Shown one piece after another: positions 40,517 to 52,490 of a stretch of 64,000 nucleotides of DNA. Made by a program: the position numbers and the translations under genes. The first letter of the stretch is position 1; every line of letters starts with the position of its first letter. The stretch is from Rhexocercosporidium sp. MPI-PUGE-AT-0058 (lineage: Eukaryota; Ascomycota; Leotiomycetes; Helotiales), in contig JAGTJL010000010.1 of the NCBI GenBank assembly GCA_020746875.1, forward strand, positions 620,001 to 684,000, written 5' to 3'. The notes under the pieces were generated by a model. That model did no database searches and was not told where the DNA came from. It saw only the letters and a program-made list of their open reading frames with translations.

Positions 40517-41171
40517 ATTTGGTGGAATTTTCGGTCACGCAGTTGTATTAGGTGGTGTGATGAAGGCGGTGGGAGGGAGGGAGTGCTTAGAAGGCCTTGA
40601 AGATGATGAGATGGGGCGGGTGAGATGAGATGAGTCCGCGAGGGGTGAGAAGAAGTATTTGAAAGACGTGAGAGAAAAGAAAAGAGCGTATCTTGTGTCG
40701 TGAAGAGATCACATGGCTTTGATTCGATGAAGAGTCGTGACTTATTCTTTGGTTTGGGATGATGTCCCTAGCATGCAACAGTCGAGGTTGTTTGTTCATC
40801 CAAGCTACTCATGAGAAGCGAGGCCGAGGTGGAAGCGAGAAGGCCAACATCCGTGGGTTGCGTCACACGTGATACTTCAACATGTAATTCAAGAAGCCCA
40901 AACCATGGCATAACAAGAAGATACACTTACAGAGCTTTGTCAGAATGAAGATATCTTATCCTCCTCGACCTCGTCTACAGATCTCCAAGCACACGTGCTT
41001 AGCACACCTGCCAAACATGTGTCCCATCCCTGTCCTTCCCGCGCGACGATCTCGCAATCCAGACCCGGCTATTTAGGGTCGCAACCCTTCAAGGCTCAAA
41101 TCCTGAATATCCTCATCCCCCCGATCCGACGAAATCCGACTTTGAACTTGGCGAGCAAAAGATCGTCCTTG
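40517..41171. other. Upstream region of the RecA-like gene, left edge of the gene-free zone
   Basis: About 650 bp. It should contain the promoter of the RecA-like gene. No box of the adjacent array is convincing here; ACACGTGCTTAGCA near 40,992 is only a weak resemblance. No gene is supported. Confidence 0.4.
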
Positions 41172-44100
41172 CTACATGCAACAAAACTCACTTCTTTCCA
41201 ACAACTCGTCTCTTTCTACCCAATCCAGTGCTTCGCCAGGCGCGCGAAAGTAAGCAAGCAAGCAAGCCCAAGGATGTGTCTGCCATCTCGCGTCCGGGTG
41301 AAGCCACGATGAGGGAAAAGACTGGTCTAGATGCAGGGAGGGCTGTCTTCAGGCTTCAGGCCCATTCAAACTGTCTCGTTGTCGATCACGAAAAATACGA
41401 CGTGCAACAAAGCTGAAATCAGATCACTTGTGTCCTCTGTCCTCTCGTAGCCCTTGCTGTTGGGCGTGGGTAAAAGCAAAGTAATCCGGAAACAGTTGGT
41501 GAGAAACCGGCTGTCGTGGGGTTGTGGGAAGGGGGCTTAACGCCCAAACCTTCAACCCACGGTCTGGAATGCTCCAGACACTTCCCAAAGGGGCAGTCGA
41601 AATGTCGTCTCAAACTGCGGCGTGCAACAAAAACGCTGACCTCTTCTCATGATTTGATTGCTCTTTGTGCAACCTCGGACTTTGGTCGCTGGGCTTGAGG
41701 CTTGGGACCTGGATTCGGGCTTGGAATGGGATGTTGCATTTCCTCTTTCGGACAGTCTGGCCTCACCAGCAGACTTCTTGGCGACTGGGCGACGATCTCA
41801 GACGTGCAACAGAGGGTTCAGTACAAAGTTCAATTACCTTTACGAGCTATCGAAATCTCAGGAGCTGCTACTGAAGTGTCGCTGTAGTCTAGTACACGTT
41901 GGTTGTGTGGCTGCAGCCACAGTAGGATCAGGAGATTACCCATATTCCATAGACGAGGGACCAAGAAGACTACAGAATCGGTACAGTATCGTGACTTATG
42001 GGAGACTCGAACGCTCGAATATATCGCAGATCTTTTGAGACCTGCAACAAAAATTGTCAGAAGCTTCTCTGATTTGACTCTTCAGGAGTTGTTGGCTGCT
42101 CCAAGTCCGGTAAGGGGATCTGCCTCGAACCGTGGCTGATGCAGATGGCCGTGCCAGGGGTTGAAATCAGGATGAAGTTGACGATCTCTCAGCCCATAAT
42201 CGTCGCCTGGACCGCTCGATTTTGTGAAGATCAATTTGCGACGTGCAACAATCGTTCAGAAGACTGCAACTCTCTCAAATGATTCGCTGCTATCTTGTAA
42301 AGCGGCCCGTCGCTTTCTCGAAAGCTGACAGCCGATGCTTGTCTATCGCTGGAAAGTTCCCGTGGCTGGGCTGCCATTTGGTTATTTTCGGGATGCCTAT
42401 CAGCAGACAACCTCACACAACAACCGTCTACAGCCTCAAAATCCGACCCATAATTCAAGACGTGCAACAAATCCCTCTTTCATTCCTTCTGTGTAACCTT
42501 TCAGCTTTGATCTCCCCTCCCAAACCCACCTGCAAGCCATTCCATCAAGATCCCGTACAAGCCATGTGAAAGGCAACCCCCTCCGTCCCGATGACATGCA
42601 GGTCATGCATCAATCTCGAACGCTCCAAAGCCCCCATCTAAGCTCATTTAGACCCTTGGATAGCTGGGCTTAGGCTCAGAGCGTGCAACAAAACATCAGT
42701 TTACCTCTTTTCCACTCTTATGACTGGATCGTGAAGAGCCGTTGACGGGCGGTTTTGGCCCTTGGAAGTTGGAATCCTGCAATAAATGCGCCGCTGCAGC
42801 TGCACACGCCCGGATGCAATCAAAGATGAGAAGGCCAGGCTACGCCATCCCGAAGCAGCCGCATGGTCTAGAATGAAGATCCCTTTTCTGCGGTCTGCAA
42901 CAAAATCAAAACTGTCATCTCTGTCTGTGAGTAATCAGAATCAAGTAAAGCTGACTTTGACTCTTCGAAGAGTGACTGGGATCACTGGGTGGTAGTGGTA
43001 ATTTGCTCCAAACCTCCAGTCGGGCAAACGAATCAAGGTCAGGCAGTCAGCTGGTGCGGTCTCGTCTCAGCATCATTCTGGAACATCACCATCCATCGTC
43101 CTGAGACACCAGCGAAAAAGTACTCTAAATCGTCCAACTCCGCTCTTGTGCATGAGAACTGCGATGTGCATCAAAATATTTTAAGAGACATGGAAGTTGT
43201 GACCTTTGAGATCAGCTGAGCTGAGGACAGAATACCCCGTGCCCGTGTTCTGTTCTGCCATCATCCCTTCAGCCCTATTAAGGGGCTGGAATTCTGATGA
43301 CGCCTGACTTGGACACGACACCTGACTTGTCATCTCCATAATTTCTCCCTGTAGTCGTACAAACAAACCCACATGCGAAAACCTTCCGAAGCAAACCCAT
43401 CAGTCATACTAGCTCCGGCACTTGAAAAACTTTGAGTTGAGTGGGGGCCACTTCCAAGACTCCCAAGACCCGTCGACGTGCAACAAACATGCAAGCAAAG
43501 TTTATAATTTTTCTTGATGACTCCTTCGCAGCGAAGAGAGGAAGGATGGCTGCTTCCGAAGTCAAGGGTTTGCTTGGTTGGTTGGTTGGTGTGTGTTGGT
43601 CTGTTACATTTCTCTTGGGACCAAGAGAAGAAAGGGACGATTTCCACCCTCGCTAAGATCTGGGCTCTGCTTGTTTTCTCTTGGTGGTGGACGGGGAAAG
43701 TCCATCTTCTCTCCTTTTTCAAAGACGAGTTGAAAGTATAGACATGAGATGACTAGTAGCTCATAGCAATTCTCAGATCACTTAGAGTCATTCGAGAGAT
43801 TCTTTTCTACCGAACAATATCATCGAGACTTCTGTTCGGATCGTCTAATCATGTCACATCACCACCAGACGAACATCCCAGAAGCGAGAAGACTGCATGC
43901 AGTTCGCGGCCTCCTCCCAACAATTGAATGACTAACATTCCTACACGTATGAGCCTCTATAGGAGGCTGAGGTGGCATCCCTCTCTTTCGAGATCAGAGC
44001 TTCCTTAGAGAGACCTGCATTTAGATAAGGTTGAGTGACTGCACCCACCCGCATGTACATCAACTAGCGCCTCTTGGGTATTTCCTCGACATGCAACAAA

Positions 44101-44830
44101 ATCTCTCTTCTGCTCTTTCCAATTCGTCATATTTGGTAGCCAAGACATACTTTCCATCATGACTTTGCAGAGCCTCGGATATCACCGAGTCACTCGGTGT
44201 GCGGCTTCAACGGCAGCGCCATGGCAGGCGCCGCCCTTTGACCTTGGCGAGACGCGGAACTTTACATCCCCTTTGCAGCTACAGTCATCAACTTCCAAGA
44301 ACTTCAAATCGACGCCCAGAAAGTGAGACGTGCAACAAAATAATTTTTGGGGGATGATCTTGATCGTTTGTGGATGGGTCGTGTTAGTAAATTGGAACGG
44401 CTGCTGATCAGTCGTACACGCTACGGTATTTGGGTTGATGTGGTGCCATCTTGGCTGACGAAAAGGTTTGTACATCTTGCTCCTCTCCTTGTCAAAGAGA
44501 GAACATGGTTTGACGATAGTTAGGATACCGGCAAATGCATGATTATTTACAGAGATCGCAAATTTCCGGATTACGGAGGAGGAAACCTTAACTCCCTCGT
44601 GTGAAAACTTTTTTTTTGACTGTTGACAACAACACCACCCCTTGGCAAGCGAGGTTTATCTTCCACCTCGACATTGCCGCGTCTGTCACTGCGCAGATGT
44701 AAAAACAACCAAGATATTAGCAATTAACATGATCCAAAACCACCCTCTCATCTCCCCCAAAACACGCGCAACATTGGCATTATTCTCCACGGTTGACTTA
44801 CAGCCTTGGCAATACCACACCGCGAAAAAA

Positions 44831-45400
44831 GAAGAATCTCGGATGTCTTGGCTGCCAAATCGACCTCGGATACCGCCAAGCACAGGTCAATCCTCAACAG
44901 ACTCTAGACCTCAAGAATGAAAAGCCAAGGGAATTGGCAAGATATTCGATATGCAACAGAACTTTTTTCATTTGGATTGATTGGGAAGTTTGGTATTCAT
45001 GGTGGAAAGTACCATAGATTGAAGAATCTCGGATGGCTTGGCAGTCCGAACCATCTGATGCTCCCTTACAAACAAACGACAGTCCAATACAGCATCTAGA
45101 CCATGGATATAAGAGCCAAGAGAATTGGCAAGAGTTCAGATATGCAACAGAAGTTTTTTTATTTGAATTGATTGGGAGGATTGGTAGGTAATCTTCGTTG
45201 TGCAGGAGGAAGATGATTATGGAATATCTTGGCAGTCGAAACCAAACCGTACGATACAAATCGTACGGGAATTCCCCACCCCACGAGGACTCACCAAAAA
45301 CTCTAGACTGCGGATACTAAGCCAAGACAATTGGCAAAAGATGCGACTTGCATCAGAAGTCTCTCAATCCCCAAAATTTGCAGATTTAAGGTGCTGCTTC
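44831..45400 (+). repeat. Three still-alignable tandem units inside the box array
   Basis: Units starting near 44831, 45021 and 45211 share ordered blocks: GAAGAATCTCGGATG (units 1 and 2; diverged in 3), CTTGGCAGTC (45037 and 45228), CTCTAGAC/ATCTAGAC, AAGCCAAG, AATTGGCAA (44932, 45123, 45329) and the array core (44952, 45143, 45349). The period is 190-191 bp between units 1 and 2. It is 206 bp for the last interval, where unit 3 has gained about 15 bp around a perfect inverted repeat. This shows the array arose by tandem duplication. Confidence 0.85.
45247..45268. repeat. Perfect 9-bp inverted repeat with 4-base loop
   Basis: CCGTACGAT, loop ACAA, then ATCGTACGG: a 22-bp potential hairpin or dyad binding site in the third alignable unit, at the place where that unit is longer than its neighbours. 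Confidence 0.85.
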
Positions 45401-47201
45401 GGCCGACTAGAAGATCCGGAATTAAATCTCAGCATCAAAAGGAGGTTGCCGACGCTACTTTGGGAGGGACTCGTCAACCCACATCGTCACTCCACTCCGT
45501 AAACGTCCATTTCAACATCCACAGTCATCAGTCTAAATGTCTTGTCATTTTTTGCTACATGCAACAAACCCCCAATTTACGCAATATCATTGATCGAAAT
45601 CCAAACTCTAGGAAGATTGACAAATGCACACCACGTCATTAGCCGCGCTGACTGTTCAGAATTGGTCGCTCGTATCGAAGTACCACTCCTCATCCTAGCG
45701 TGAGCTTGAATGCCGACCCTCTATCTCCGCGCATTTGTTCTCGAAAGACTCGCGACGAAACCAGACAGATTACCCTCCCATTCCCAGCAATCAGAGAGCG
45801 ATTTAAACGCCTCTTTTACTGGGCGTTGGGTGCGAAATGCAACAGAAGTTCTGTTCATTCAATTAACCTTTCGTGAAATGGATGGTTACATCCATCTTGG
45901 CAGTTCATTGCCTTGGATGGTCCTCTTGATCTGACTTTTGAGACTTGTCCCTTGGTGGTTCTCGCTTAGCTTGGCATAACATACCTCGCCCCTTTTTGTG
46001 CTTCACAATGTTGGAGATCGCTGGAAAGAAGTCATGTAGAATTCCTTTCGCCAGTAATTACATTTGCAGGTCTTCATGTCTCAAAACTTAATTTTTGTCC
46101 TTCGAAAAGGTCTTATTCGACCTCACCGACATCCGCGACCGGCAAACTCATCTCATGTCCACCCGTCCACCGCCTCATGTCGGAACAGCCATCCGCGGAA
46201 CGCTCCCAGTAAACCTTCCTTTCCAAGCATCTTTCTCGTCGCTTGGCTGGAAATACGGCGTGCAACAAAACATTCCTACATCCATTTCGACGAGGAAGTC
46301 CTCTTCCGCGGGGTTCGTAGGGTGTTCGCAAGCTCGAGGCGAGGGCCATCAGGAAGGGGGTGCCGAATGCCCGTCTTGGGGTTTTGCTGGCCGTGTCTCG
46401 CCTGGCTCCCCCAACCCCAAGCAACCGACATGAGCCCGCCCTCGTCTTGACAAAAAGGTTTGCGTAAGTGCTCGATACGGAGTACGTGGAAAAGCCAAGG
46501 CATTTCCGCGATGTGCAACAAAAGTCCTGCGCAAGTTGAGCCCAGCTTGATCGGCCAACGATGAGCTCAGCAGCGAGCAACGTGAAAAAAGATGATCAAA
46601 TGGAGTAGAATTGGATCTTGAGGCGTTAAATCCCATCCCAAGCCAAGCGCCAAGACAAGCTTTGCCAAGATACTTGGCAAGATGACTGCCGTGATACATC
46701 GACTTATCTTTTCCATCTCTACGCAACCTCATTCGTCTTCATTCTAGATATCATAACATGTATTCGACTCATATTAATCCTTGTTCTGACTGCTAGGCTG
46801 GAATATGGAAAAGCGCTCACGATCTCCTCCATCTGCCATCTCTACCGGCCTCCTTTCACCCATCACGGACTTTGCCCAGCCCTGATCACCGCCAAGAGCC
46901 TCATACATTCCAACTCAGCAAGCAACTCATCACTCAAGCAAAGCCAGCACTCCTTAGCTTCGCTGGGCATTTCTATCGACGTGCAACAGTACTTCTTGTT
47001 CAAACGCAAATTGACGAATCAGCAGCCCCATCAAAGCCCAGCTGCACTCTATCTTGCTTCTTCTCCTTGTTTCTCCGCTCACATACTATGCCGTTCGGTC
47101 CGACCACGACCAGTCATCCAAGCTATTTCCGCAAGCAGACTTCCCAAGTACGTATACAACAGCAGCCGATGTCTCGGCACTGGATTAGACGTGCAACAAA
47201 A

Positions 47202-50200
47202 CCTTTTCTGCTCTTCTTTCTTCCATCTGATTTGATCTGATTTGATCGTAGGCGAGGCTTGTTTTGTGGCTTGGTTGAGATTTGTTTAAGCTTTGTTTGA
47301 CGACTGTCGCAATTTTAGGATGGTTTGGAATCTTTTCTCGCTTAACTCTCTCCCCCGCTCTTTCTACTCTTCCAGACTACAGTACCACCACCCCCTGGAA
47401 GGAGAGGGAAAGTATCACTCCTGAGCACCCAGGGGAAATCAAACGTCACATCCTTTGCGAAAGTGTAAAGAAGTTTCGGTGCACTGCCTCTTACACTGCC
47501 TCGTTGTATTACAGGTGGTTAGATTGTTTGGATTGTTTGGCTTTCACCGATTCCAGTTTCTGGTGTTTGATCCCCCAGGGTGTGAGAGATGGCGTTGATG
47601 AGGTATTTACGCCTGAATTCAAAATATTAGGGAGAGTCTTCGTTAGATGTTTCCAGATGCTGTCTGAAGCTGAAGTTGGTAGCGGGGGTGGGGAAGGGAT
47701 TTGCCAAACGAGACTCGTTCCAGAAGATCTTTGACTTTTGGGGAGATCAGTACCGAGATCAAGAAACGTTCTGGGAAATGAAATCTGGCACCCGAAGTGG
47801 TTAATTTTATGACTTATCTCGCTTGTTATGTGTAGCTCCTGCATCGAAAGCTTTCAGAACGACAGGGAGATACGGACCTCTCCTCTTCTCAAGAGGTATT
47901 TTCCCTCATCTAGATGCAAAAAATATTCTTCTTATAGCGGCCTGCCCGCTCCCTCAATCAAATCTTTGGCCTGTTATATAATAACAAATTGAGGTTAGCC
48001 GTGAGAAGGTGAATCCAGAAATTTGGAGCAATACCCATCCGCTGGCATGATTCCCCCTCAACCTGACAGGTATAGGAACGAGTTCCTCAAGTCCCAAGGT
48101 CCAGAATACCTCGTCGAAGCTACAGAAATAACATCAAGCCCCTCAAACCCGAGGATGCAACCACAGTGTTTCGCTATGCAAAGCAAATCGCCCAACAAGC
48201 TCTTTTACTCTACCTCTCCTCCTTCATTGTATATTAGCTCAATGTCTCACCCACCAACCCCTCGAGATCCAACGACAGCAATCCAACACAGCTACAGACG
48301 ACCCCCTTTCGATGCTGGGACACTCACCTAGAACCTCAAACAGACCTCTGCGCAACATCTCCTACATCCCTCGTCAAGCATCTCCCCGTCAACAGTTGGC
48401 TGCATAATATCATAACAGAAAACAGTCGTCTAGGTCCGGGACTGCAAGACTCCACGTCGAGATTCAAGAGGAAATACTGGTATAGCCAAGGAGCTTCCAG
48501 GTGGCATGATCAATGGTCGAGGAGACATCTATCTATACAAATCCTGGCTATATGGATAAACATGGATGGAATAGAGGTGGGTACAGAAGAGACTTGATCT
48601 CGACTCTCTACCCTACCACCCTCCACAAAACGAAAACCTCGTTTCTTCTAGCCGGCCGGTATAAGAATAGTTACCTTGACGTCAGCTACATGCCTACAAA
48701 AGACTACACAGATGTTTCTATTGTCTCTCTTCTCAACGACATAAGCTTGAGTATGATGACCATCGAACAACTTTCGAAATCAAACTCTTGCCGCGATAAT
48801 TTTGCTCACCCCCTGGCCGAATTCCAATCCCTTTGAAAGGCGCAGACAGACACACAAGAATTAGATCTCCACAGCCTTTCATCTCCCACGACAAGAGGCC
48901 AGTCTCTAGAAGTCTAAAGCCTCGTTCCGAAGCCCAAACCAAAGCAGACATGTCTACAGGAGATGAAGAGAGAGGACAAGAAGAGCTGATCCAGATGACT
49001 ATACTCCAACAAAGACAGACAAATAGCGAGGGAGGAGAGAGATGAATTGACGAGATGAAAGAATTTGACAGTTTTTCTTCCACGAAAAATTACAGTACAG
49101 AACAGAGGAACACTAGTTCCTTGATTAGAATCTGTACTTTCAGCAGACAGCATGGTTGATGCTACAGTAGCTAGGAACTGCGAAAACACATCTTTGCACT
49201 CCTTGCGTTTTCCATCCCATAAGCAGCCCCCTTCCATCCCATCCCAGGCAGCTCAACCCACATCATCCCCCCTCCCAATCAAAGAAACCCCCTCCAACAA
49301 TCAATAAATCCCTACCCCTCCCCCTCCCCACATCCCCCCTCAAATAAAGTACACTCCTCTTCTCCCGCCACCCATCACTACATATAGTAAGCGAGCAAGC
49401 GAGAAATCTAGACCTCCTTCCTTCGCTTTCCGCCCCTCGCTCCTGAGTCGCTACCTCACCAGTAACCCACCCCCAGAAGACCAGAGACCGGTCTAGCCCA
49501 GATGAGACATGCAACAACGAATCCGATATTCTTTTCGTGCGTCTGGGTTCTTTTCTGGTGGGCAATAGAGGGAGGAGATGTACGTAGGTAATGAGCGGCT
49601 CCGGCAATGTTAATCTGGACATCATGAAGCAAGCAGCAGCGGAAGGATGTATGCATGCAGGCATGCATACACGGCGTGCATAAAGAATCTCGGCCTTCCC
49701 TCCGTTGCGACTTCTTAAGAGTCTGACCTGGCCTTCAAAGATGTGTAACCAAACCTTCGGGGTATAAACATAAGTGTCGTGCACGGCAGAAGTCAGCTTG
49801 GGCGCTCATAACCCTTCTGTGCAGAAGAGACTCTGATCTACCGAGCGCAAACAATCGGTCAAAGGTGTCAAGGTCAAAAGAAAGAACGCGTCGTCTTTTC
49901 ATTTCATGCATTCAATTTGCCTCCGAAATTATCTCACACAAGACCGAGCGCTCTTCAAGAGAAACTCAGCCATCGCCCATCCACCGTTGGCCTGCTGCCT
50001 GCCTCTGGTATCTCAGACCCCCTCGTCTTCAACTTCTCTAATGCAACACACTTGAAAGCAGCACCGAGAAACAGAAAGAAGCAGATCCAGACATCCTGCG
50101 CCTTCCCGTCTGTCATGCAAAGGAACCAATCAAACGGTTATCATCTCGCTGGAATAACGCCTTCCTCCTCTACTTCACTTACTAGCCCCTCGGGTTTCAA

Positions 50201-50451: not shown

Positions 50452-52490
50452 TCAAGAATCTTGTGGCGGTGATCTCTCAGCTCGTGCCTTTCTTGGGCCA
50501 CCCTTCAAACTCTTGACGCGAGACAAGAATCCTCCACTGGTCTTTGGGGTTGTAGCTGGGGGCATGCTACTGTCGGTTCCGTCACCAGTAACACGTCTCT
50601 CAAGGCGTTCACCAAATCCACGTCTAGGAGGGCTACTTGGTGCTCTGGCTCTCCCGGTTTTCTCGGGCTCAACAATAGTAATGCTCTCCTTCTTATCATC
50701 ACCCTTGCCGAACTCATTGAAGAATGGGTTCGTCTCGTTGACCTTGGAACCACCAGGCGTGCGCAGCTCTGGAGAGTACATTCCTTCGGGACTGGTAATA
50801 CGGCCTGAGGGGCCATAATCACGTCTAGTGCCGTTGATTCCACGAATCTTTTGAGCCAAAGACTTCTTGCGTCCCAAACCTCCTACCTCGGTTGGCGATG
50901 TTTGCTCGCTCTCACGGCGCTGAAGTGCTGCTCTGGATGCAGGGGCTCCCTCCAAGAAGGTCGAAGTTCCTAGGCCGAGGGTTTCCTCACCATGGATAGG
51001 CTCGACTCGGGTGGTGGCGCTTTGGACAACCGGCTGAGATCCGACAGGTCTAGGAACTGGGTTGTCGTAGGGCTCATATCCATTGTTTCCTGCTCCACCC
51101 TTGGAATATTCCTTGAAGGCCTCCTCATCGGCTTGTCCAAGGAAGGTTGCATGGTCCGGTCTCTTGTTGATGGGTCCTCCACCTCCCAGAACATTGTTCA
51201 GTGAATCCTTGGGGAAAGCTTGCATCGGGGCGCGTCTGCTACCTTGTCTGTTGCGGTGAGGATTACAAGCATCGAAGGGTCCGTCATGATGGAATACTAT
51301 TACAATTAGCATTGAAGAAACCGTAGTTCGAGAAAACTTACATCCAGTGCCATAGATACTCGTAACATCTAACTTGTCGATAATGTCCAATTTCCGGTCC
51401 GGCTTTCTCTTGGGATCCTTCCCCTCGCGCTCTCGCCGTTCTCTACGCTCACGTCTCTTTCTCTCCTGTCGCTTCTTCTCCTCTTCTGGGTCGAGTGGTT
51501 TCCGGTCAACGACGGAAGATTCGGAGTTTCTTCGTACGCGTCTGTTGGAATCGAGTCTTCGAGCGGTTGAGGAATCGACTGGGTCGGCAAAGATATCCAA
51601 TTCTTGCTGCGAAGGGGCCGGCTTGCTGATAGACGAACCTCCAGCTATTCTGCGAGCCCGCATTGCCTCCTCCTGTGATCGAGATGGTCGGTGACCAGAT
51701 GGTCCTCTTGGGGGTCCACGGGGCGGAACATTCTCACCACGGGTTGTGTAAGGTGGAGGCATCTTTTCACCAGTATTCGTTCGAGGAGGGGGCGGTCGCA
51801 TGGTGTTACTGGTAGCTGGCTTGTCATCAAGAGTGAGATTGTCCTGGAGATCCATGGTCAGTAATTCAGTACTTTGAGTCATTGACATGATTACTAGAAC
51901 AGTGATTTGTACAACCAAGCAAGAGAGAGTGAGGAGGGTTCGTGTTCAAGTACGGGGCAGAAAAACATGTCCTTGGAATGGGAATGACGTACGAATAGAT
52001 CAGCGGCGTTGCCAGTCAATGCTGGTCTTGGCTGAGAATCTGCTGCGAAGGCCATCTTGTCAGGGGATCCGAGGGCTTGTTGAGAATAGGTATTTGCTTG
52101 TAGTTGTTCGGAAGAGGAATCAAGGAATGGATTTCGAGAGACAGGTCTGGGGGGAGGGTGTTGAGGTGAGCGTTGACCGTTCGAAAAAGCAGGAGATGCT
52201 GCCCGATTTCGAAAAGGGTTGTTGGAGGAAAGATTCAGCTGCAGTCCTGGGGACATGCGAGAATCTATATCAAAACAGGATCTTGTTAGCCGGCGGATTC
52301 ATGCATGTCCCTGACAGCGAGTTGCAAGAACGTTTGAAACAAGCCAATTGCCAACATGATACGCCCAACACAACCATAAGTGGGGTTGAGGATCTGTCGT
52401 TGATGCGGCGAAGCGTGCCCACAGGATATATCATCAGGGGATTGGAGCACCAGAGAACTGACCTGCTTGGCCTGGTTGGGCGAGCGACAT
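50452..52490 (-). CDS. PAL1: Pal1-family cell morphology/endocytosis protein
   Basis: Four exons, 52490-52463, 52264-51993, 51843-51342 and 51296-50452, give 548 aa. The assembled start MSLAQPGQADSRMSPGLQLN leads into SSNNPFRNR, RNPFLD and ALTGNAADLFDNLTL, NPF-type motifs that bind EH domains. A basic KRQERKRRERRERREREG stretch precedes the Pal1 core: LDVTSIYGTGLFHHDGPFDA and CNPHRN. Fission-yeast Pal1 and budding-yeast Pal1/Pal2 sit at the cortex with endocytic coats and influence cell shape. The third intron is only 45 bp and in frame without a stop, so retention would insert 15 residues into the conserved YGTG/FHHDG block. The 28-nt first exon was chosen because it joins in phase to the MSPGLQ exon; starting at that internal ATG (52256) is the alternative. 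Confidence 0.88.

What the first reader, a model, noticed from the sequence alone, without database searches (positions are those of the whole stretch)
41172..47201. A 6-kb noncoding array of 22 same-strand 15-bp boxes spaced about 210 bp apart
The box MGACGTGCAACAAAA recurs 22 times in one orientation with a near-constant period. The larger gaps are close to whole multiples of that period. The loose core TGCAWCAR turns up only about four more times by eye on the + strand in the other 58 kb (12909, 32718, 49510, 54819), close to chance, and once off-phase inside the array (42606). Most of each unit has diverged beyond recognition while the box has not, which suggests the box itself is selected. 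Possible readings: a satellite with a protein-binding box (compare the CENP-B box in alphoid DNA), nucleosome-scale phasing sites, a multi-unit noncoding RNA or small-RNA precursor, or a replication or heterochromatin element. I know of no described fungal element of this form.
Basis: partly seen in the sequence, partly recalled or inferred. Interest (0 to 1): 0.92.

Follow-up and report, generated by a model that had tools for sequence, protein, structure and literature searches.

The report
Fungal DNA box in arrays
A non-coding stretch of a fungal genome carries 22 copies of a short directional DNA word that recurs at more than a hundred other places in the same genome, singly or in rows, most likely docking sites for a DNA-binding protein not yet identified.

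Summary
The 22 same-strand boxes are real, but not a local 210-bp satellite. The box (TGCGAYGTGCAACAAAA) is genome-wide: the exact 14-mer GACGTGCAACAAAA occurs 63 times, reversed control 0; a degenerate form 179 times, control 9; 173 of these fall at 116 loci. Other arrays have their own spacings, about 52 to 210 bp. Within arrays similarity extends upstream of the box, usually little downstream. RNA folding shows no average signal. At some loci a forkhead-like word sits at one fixed distance: all 9 RTAAACA hits at -50..-10 lie at -18 (7 loci); the reverse word lies at -21 in 4 of 7 hits (3 loci). Acceptance in either orientation points to duplex DNA. RGGTGAA accompanies this class (13 of 15 loci). 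The window's own array has neither partner. Best reading: sites for an unidentified DNA-binding protein, multiplied by tandem duplication and kept by selection. What binding does is unknown; no relative's DNA, expression or ChIP data could be examined.

The parts
41170..47201 (+). non-coding array of 22 same-strand boxes
41170..41186 (+). box 1 (core 41177)
   Evidence: 26.0 bits
41396..41412 (+). box 2 (core 41403)
41616..41632 (+). box 3 (core 41623)
41798..41814 (+). box 4 (core 41805)
42036..42052 (+). box 5 (core 42043)
42237..42253 (+). box 6 (core 42244)
42456..42472 (+). box 7 (core 42463)
42677..42693 (+). box 8 (core 42684); left half departs from the genome-wide matrix
   Evidence: below 6 bits
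42889..42905 (+). box 9 (core 42896)
43160..43176 (+). box 10 (core 43167)
43472..43488 (+). box 11 (core 43479)
44085..44101 (+). box 12 (core 44092)
44324..44340 (+). box 13 (core 44331); exact 14-mer GACGTGCAACAAAA
44945..44961 (+). box 14 (core 44952); boxes 14-16 lie in the least decayed units
45136..45152 (+). box 15 (core 45143)
45342..45358 (+). box 16 (core 45349)
45553..45569 (+). box 17 (core 45560)
45831..45847 (+). box 18 (core 45838)
46254..46270 (+). box 19 (core 46261)
46507..46523 (+). box 20 (core 46514)
46975..46991 (+). box 21 (core 46982)
47185..47201 (+). box 22 (core 47192); exact 14-mer
49503..49519 (+). outlying good box (core 49510), not among the 22
   Evidence: 17.4 bits
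44923..45360 (+). three related units; similarity strongest from about -40 to the box
   Evidence: families D5, D7-D10; (box 0.78, -40..-8 0.72, downstream 0.50)
50455..51945 (-). neighbouring open frame with Pal1 domain; its 3' end faces the array

Best explanation
Each box is a directional, roughly 17-bp recognition site for one unidentified sequence-specific DNA-binding protein. The box can be read as two heptamers in direct repeat (TGCGAYR TGCAACA) plus an A tract, which would suit a protein with two tandem DNA-contacting modules (inference, untested). A site is first present singly, at some loci beside a partner site at a fixed distance (forkhead-like GAAAGTAAACAAA, with RGGTGAA further out). 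Local tandem duplication copies site and neighbourhood, so a row has one orientation and its own spacing. Afterwards the sequence between sites decays, while the box and, more weakly, the 30-50 bp upstream are kept because binding is under selection. The window's array is an old row of this kind. Shown: the genome-wide family, one-strand rows, array-specific spacing and upstream sequence, and a partner word at a fixed place in either orientation at a subset of loci. Inferred: the protein, selection on binding, and that bound arrays act as intergenic regulatory platforms (enhancer, silencer or promoter of non-coding transcripts).
For: 63 exact 14-mers genome-wide, reversed control 0; GAYRTGCAWCARAA 179, control 9. 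Of the 179, the 173 whose places were listed lie at 116 loci, 27 with two or more; 43 of 47 neighbours within 2 kb share the strand. Between loci identity is 0.25-0.27 outside -10..+14; adjacent units of one array are 0.34-0.55 identical at -30..-6 and 0.25-0.33 at +15..+89. Eight chosen arrays: box 0.78-0.92, -40..-8 0.41-0.72, downstream 0.34-0.65. In a young two-copy duplication (L012) 63 columns around the box are identical, 49 of them outside the 14-mer used to find it, against 17 changed of 94 columns further upstream, 5 of the 17 being gaps (P about 8e-4). All 9 RTAAACA hits at -50..-10 lie at -18, in 7 loci; genome-wide 11 of 13 GTAAACA at gap 7 and 2 at gap 5 of 31 gaps allowed, control 1; TGTTTAC 4 of 4 at gap 10, control 0. 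A partner accepted both ways round at one place argues for duplex DNA. RGGTGAA within 100 bp: 13 of 15 composite loci, 6 of 51 loci without the composite. No average RNA fold signal; no Rfam family in the window.
Against: No binding, expression or chromatin data and no DNA from a related species: selection is inferred from one genome. Sites were found by the box, so box conservation is partly ascertainment; the L012 test and the empty score range between good boxes and background in this window answer this only partly. The partner words were noticed in the sites in which they were first tested; searches are genome-wide but include those sites. The window's array has no RTAAACA and no AGGTGAA and only slight upstream similarity overall (0.27-0.35 at -30..-6), so duplex DNA is shown for the composite class and merely extended to it. 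The reverse forkhead-like word also occurs at -45..-48 in two arrays (3 of 7 hits). In L016 the downstream flank is as similar as the upstream one (0.65 and 0.64). Rough coding scores do not put boxes in promoters: intervals with a box were 6 of 13 convergent, 12 of 31 tandem, 1 of 7 divergent at the loosest of three cut-offs, unlike ordinary fungal promoter elements. Pfam domains of 29 nearby frames show no common theme.
Confidence: 0.6

Rival explanations
1. RNA-level array: the interval is one long non-coding RNA carrying many copies of an RNA-binding-protein motif, as NORAD does for Pumilio.
For: Rows lie on one strand (22 of 22 here; 43 of 47 neighbours within 2 kb); the four exceptions all diverge, as outward transcripts would. 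NORAD has 12 repeat units probably from tandem duplication and at least 17 motifs (PMC9680495, passages).
Against: At composite loci the partner word occurs in both orientations at one place, which RNA would not explain; tandem duplication alone explains the strand; no average folding signal; with the looser matrix convergent neighbours also occur (L009, L016, L020); boxes sit both sense and antisense to neighbouring coding segments (in tandem intervals 41 antisense and 7 sense sites, dominated by a few arrays).
Confidence: 0.13
2. Chromosome-organising element: arrays load a protein that anchors, pairs, silences or replicates chromosomes rather than regulating genes.
For: A box lay in 1 of 7 divergent (promoter-type) intervals against 18 of 44 others (weak); multi-site loci occur on many contigs; arrays of a bipartite site bound by PfSIP2 belong to chromosome-end biology in Plasmodium (PMC2829057, passages).
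Against: 89 of 116 loci are single sites and multi-site loci are not one per contig; no clear compositional difference (GC 0.485 against 0.490; CpG observed/expected 0.82 against 0.80).
Confidence: 0.15
3. Remnant of a dispersed repeat or transposon end with no present function.
For: Copies are dispersed; L018, L024 and L025 share about 30-40 bp ending at the box; two boxes 1.2 kb apart in L026 share about 85 bp upstream.
Against: Across loci, nothing outside the box is shared at a fixed place except the forkhead-like word and its edges; that word occurs flipped in place; in this window there are no half-decayed boxes between the good ones.
Confidence: 0.1

Closest known systems
SPE2 arrays bound by PfSIP2 (Plasmodium falciparum)
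   Same: Short bipartite site, 777 predicted copies, in non-coding arrays and singly; one SPE2 half-site is GTGCA, which also lies inside this box; binding needs two adjacent DNA-binding domains (PMC2829057, passages).
   Different: SPE2 has two 6-bp half-sites with a 4-5 bp spacer and 94% lie in subtelomeric heterochromatic domains; here the heptamers abut, an A tract follows, and loci lie along many contigs. A tandem-AP2 factor is not expected in a fungus (recalled, not tested).
NORAD and other repeat-built long non-coding RNAs
   Same: Units from tandem duplication that carry a short protein motif (PMC9680495, passages).
   Different: The motif is not the Pumilio element UGUANAUA, and the evidence here favours DNA.
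CENP-B box in alphoid satellite (recalled)
   Same: 17-bp-class box repeated in non-coding units.
   Different: Different sequence (0 matches in the window), no common monomer, ordinary GC content, about 116 loci.
Composite forkhead sites of yeasts, such as FLEX or Mcm1-Fkh sites (recalled)
   Same: GTAAACAAA next to a second factor's site at fixed spacing.
   Different: The second site is unlike any I recall, and most box loci read here lack the forkhead-like word.
C. elegans pairing-centre motif arrays (recalled; the listing and the passages do not describe the motif)
   Same: Many short sites clustered for a DNA-binding protein.
   Different: Those are limited to one region per chromosome; these are dispersed.

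Membership tests
CENP-B box / alphoid-type satellite | CENP-B box sequence (pattern recalled) | tested here: not met
   0 matches on either strand of the window
CENP-B box / alphoid-type satellite | one monomer length shared by arrays | tested here: not met
   array spacings from about 52 to 210 bp
NORAD-like multi-site lncRNA | one transcript spans the motifs | not testable with these tools
   no RNA data
NORAD-like multi-site lncRNA | motifs all on the transcribed strand | tested here: inconclusive
   22 of 22 on one strand here, 43 of 47 neighbours genome-wide, but duplication alone gives this
Known structured RNA family | match to an Rfam model | tested here: not met
   0 gathering-level matches in the window; mean fold z about 0
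Homotypic array of DNA-binding-protein sites | short site repeated well above chance in non-coding DNA | tested here: met
   non-coding by rough coding scores
Homotypic array of DNA-binding-protein sites | rigid spacing to a partner site independent of the partner's orientation | tested here: inconclusive
   met in the composite class; absent in the window's array
Homotypic array of DNA-binding-protein sites | a protein binds the box | not testable with these tools
   no binding data
SPE2/PfSIP2 arrays | tandem AP2-domain protein and subtelomeric heterochromatin | not tested
   no AP2 search was run; sites lie along contigs
RFX X-box | GTTGCC N0-3 GGYAAC (pattern recalled) | tested here: not met
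   0 matches in the window

The most novel reading that the evidence does not exclude
A so far undescribed fungal chromosome-organising system: a dedicated DNA-binding protein with a 17-bp bipartite site, loaded at a hundred or more intergenic loci and concentrated at some two dozen multi-site loci that grow by tandem duplication, each array with its own neighbouring sequence, so that arrays act as addressable anchors (for pairing, loop formation, silencing or replication).
Probability: 0.13. Interest if true: 0.88.

Novelty: new variant of a known kind. Interest (0 to 1): 0.66.

Why it matters
I know of few described cis-elements of filamentous fungi that are this long, this numerous and so often set in rows (recalled). 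One genome offers a sharply defined 17-bp word with 116 loci, 27 of them with two or more sites, and a subclass with a rigid grammar. That makes it simple to ask which protein reads it, what rows do that single sites do not, and how tandem duplication builds regulatory DNA. Related units within a row also allow a within-genome measure of which bases selection keeps.

Tried and rejected
Structured RNA or H/ACA-like RNA (the box ends in ACA plus three bases): mean folding z about 0, with single units at -3.4 and -2.2, and no Rfam match in the window; no pairing partner for the bases before ACA was seen by eye. tRNA genes: none. Coding repeat (GAY RTG CAW CAR would read D-V/M-Q-Q): rejected by eye, stops follow the box in several units and spacings are not multiples of three. 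3' UTR element: some boxes lie 110-500 bp past a coding segment in sense, others antisense; not consistent. Convergent-gene element: weak trend only (6 of 13, 7 of 11 and 5 of 8 convergent intervals at three score cut-offs, against 12 of 31, 8 of 17 and 8 of 16 tandem and 1 of 7, 1 of 4 and 0 of 2 divergent). TATA-type core promoter ending at the box: TATAWA has a small excess at -30..-21, from few loci. A general partner for boxes without the forkhead word: the strongest enriched words nearby are pieces of further boxes; weaker ones such as AAACTTT (P 5e-6, 8 loci) were not followed. Literature: four 10-letter forms of the box gave 90 papers, and the 30 listed are not about fungal elements by their titles; searches on Helotiales motif arrays (15 of 57 listed, 6 of 10 listed), homotypic clusters in fungi (0 papers) and forkhead composites (10 of 316 listed) showed nothing on this element in the listings; bodies were not read. 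The composite pattern was absent from viral and prokaryote contigs, collections not meant to hold fungi, so this says nothing about conservation. One search aligned overlapping pieces and gave trivial self-matches for most pairs; searches replaced it. The output was cut. The motif patterns tested were recalled.
Full report
What is there. The 22 boxes exist at the places given, all on the + strand. Aligning them shows a conserved stretch from about -7 to +9 around the core, numbered so that the T of TGCAACA is 0. With 95 sites from the window and twenty 10-kb stretches the consensus is TGCGAYGTGCAACAAAA, with a preference for A at -12 to -10. It can be read as two heptamers in direct repeat, TGCGAYR and TGCAACA, or as TGC and GCA arms around GACGT; neither reading was tested.

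Is it more than chance? 13 of 21 gaps lie between 182 and 239 bp, where uniform placement gives 2.1 on average and never more than 9 in 2000 trials. The claim that large gaps are multiples of the period fails: keeping the short gaps and jittering the others gives equal or better phase coherence in 31% of trials. On the + strand of 41-47.3 kb, 21 boxes score at least 18 bits and no other place reaches 6; the copy at 42684 departs in its left half and scores below 6. A further good box lies at 49510.

It is genome-wide. The window lies in contig C2 of a 62.7-Mb genome. C2 is 2,439,245 bases long, the same as the contig of the best PAL1 match, from Rhexocercosporidium sp. MPI-PUGE-AT-0058, a helotialean fungus; I infer that this is the organism. 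The exact 14-mer occurs 63 times, reversed control 0; the degenerate one 179 times, control 9. Of these 179, the 173 positions listed fall at 116 loci when merged at 10 kb: 89 single, 27 with two or more. Among neighbours within 2 kb, 43 of 47 share the strand and the other 4 point away from each other; random placement would give about one pair so close. With the looser matrix some neighbours also point towards each other (L009, L016, L020).

Arrays differ. Spacing is a property of the locus: about 52 bp (L044), 62 (L041), 80 (L034), 100 (L010), 140 (L032), 175 (L020), 200 (L015) and 210 here, and several rows are irregular (L013, L016, L030). So 210 bp is not the element's period and nucleosome phasing is unlikely. 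Within one array similarity extends upstream of the box: adjacent units are 0.34-0.55 identical from -30 to -6 and 0.25-0.33 from +15 to +89; between loci identity is 0.25-0.27 outside -10 to +14. In the window's own array the upstream excess is slight (0.27-0.35 at -30..-6). Alignments of eight chosen arrays give box 0.78-0.92, -40..-8 0.41-0.72, downstream 0.34-0.65; in L016 both flanks are equally similar. Sites were found by the box, so its own identity is partly built in. A cleaner test is L012, a young two-copy duplication: 63 identical columns around the box, 49 of them outside the 14-mer used for finding it, against 17 changed (5 of them gaps) of 94 columns further upstream (P about 8e-4). 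Just past this run the two copies differ again.

A grammar. In 198 sites at 60 loci, RTAAACA occurs 16 times from -120 to +124, 9 of them in the 5-bp bin at -20. All 9 of its hits from -50 to -10 start at exactly -18, in 7 loci. The reverse word TGTTTAY occurs 7 times from -50 to -10: 4 at exactly -21 in 3 loci, the other 3 at -45 to -48 in two arrays. Genome-wide, allowing gaps of 0-30, GTAAACA precedes GAYRTGCAACA 13 times, 11 at gap 7 and 2 at gap 5 (reversed control 1); TGTTTAC 4 times, all at gap 10 (control 0). GAAAGTAAACAAA resembles a forkhead site (recalled). A partner fixed in place but free in orientation is what a duplex-DNA complex gives and what an RNA motif would not. A third word, RGGTGAA, lies within 100 bp in 16 of 21 composite sites (13 of 15 loci) against 8 of 187 other sites (6 of the 51 loci without a composite). 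Five of those 15 loci (L068-L072) had been fetched because of the forkhead word, and RGGTGAA was noticed by eye before it was tested, so the P values are optimistic. Genome-wide, GTGCAACAAA followed by AGGTGAA gives 4 matches at 20-50 bp and 6 at 51-81 bp (controls 0 and 1), 9 box sites in all, 6 of them of the composite class; TTCACCT at 20-50 bp gives 1 (control 0). The window's array has neither partner word; its own upstream neighbourhood is shared mainly by three units (GCCAAG..AATTGGCAAGA).

Surroundings. The array lies between coding segments on the - strand at 38.5-39.9 kb and a Pal1-domain frame on the - strand at 50.5-51.9 kb. Rough hexamer coding scores put boxes in 6 of 13 convergent, 12 of 31 tandem and 1 of 7 divergent intervals: no clear link to promoters or gene orientation. 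Of 30 frames scanned (29 distinct), the domains found share no theme.

RNA. Folding 22 units gave a mean z of -0.07, the reverse strand -0.35 and other places of the window +0.37; two units stand out at -3.4 (41403) and -2.2 (45143). No Rfam family reached its threshold in the window.

How it most likely works. I commit to sites for an unidentified DNA-binding protein, seeded singly, copied by local tandem duplication and maintained by selection on binding (0.6). That arrays regulate transcription of neighbours or of non-coding RNA is the most likely use but only inferred; chromosome organisation is the main alternative (0.15), an RNA-level array next (0.13), a functionless remnant last (0.1).

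Compared with the known. SPE2 arrays of Plasmodium are the nearest working analogue: a bipartite site with a GTGCA half, 777 predicted copies, in arrays and singly, bound by a protein that needs two adjacent DNA-binding domains (PMC2829057, passages). Sequence, spacer and chromosomal place differ, so this is likeness, not membership. NORAD is the nearest RNA analogue (PMC9680495, passages). CENP-B satellite membership fails on two tested features. I found no description of this box in the searches, which cover open-licence papers only and were read as listings.

Limits. One genome; no expression, binding or chromatin data; no fungal relative's DNA could be searched; tool counts are lower bounds; not all loci were read; gene models are crude.

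Noticed in passing
L009, L013, L018, L024, L025, L037, L048, L051, L053, L063, L068-L072: A composite subclass: forkhead-like GAAAGTAAACAAA at a fixed distance (either orientation) next to the box, with RGGTGAA within 100 bp at 13 of these 15 loci. Not present in the window's array.
   Followed up: yes
L032 near 1015 and 1305; L068 near 754: Runs of about 12 to 22 C just downstream of boxes.
   Followed up: no
L016 (C23:933-943k) and L073 (C23:943-947.5k): Rich array: 19 + strand and 3 - strand boxes at 10 bits or more in L016, four more at 13 bits or more in L073.
   Followed up: partly
genome-wide: Where neighbouring strict boxes within 2 kb differ in strand, all 4 pairs point away from each other; with the looser matrix convergent neighbours occur too (L009, L016, L020).
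   Followed up: partly
L015 units: Array-specific upstream block CTAAC...GCTATTACAGCAAA before several boxes, resembling an intron 3' end by eye.
   Followed up: no
window 49510: Good extra box (17.4 bits) about 2.3 kb beyond the array, near the 3' end of the Pal1 frame.
   Followed up: no
L011, boxes 3638 and 6495: Boxes lie 460 and 432 bp past the last coding segment of a P450 and of an MFS-type gene; may be a metabolic cluster.
   Followed up: no
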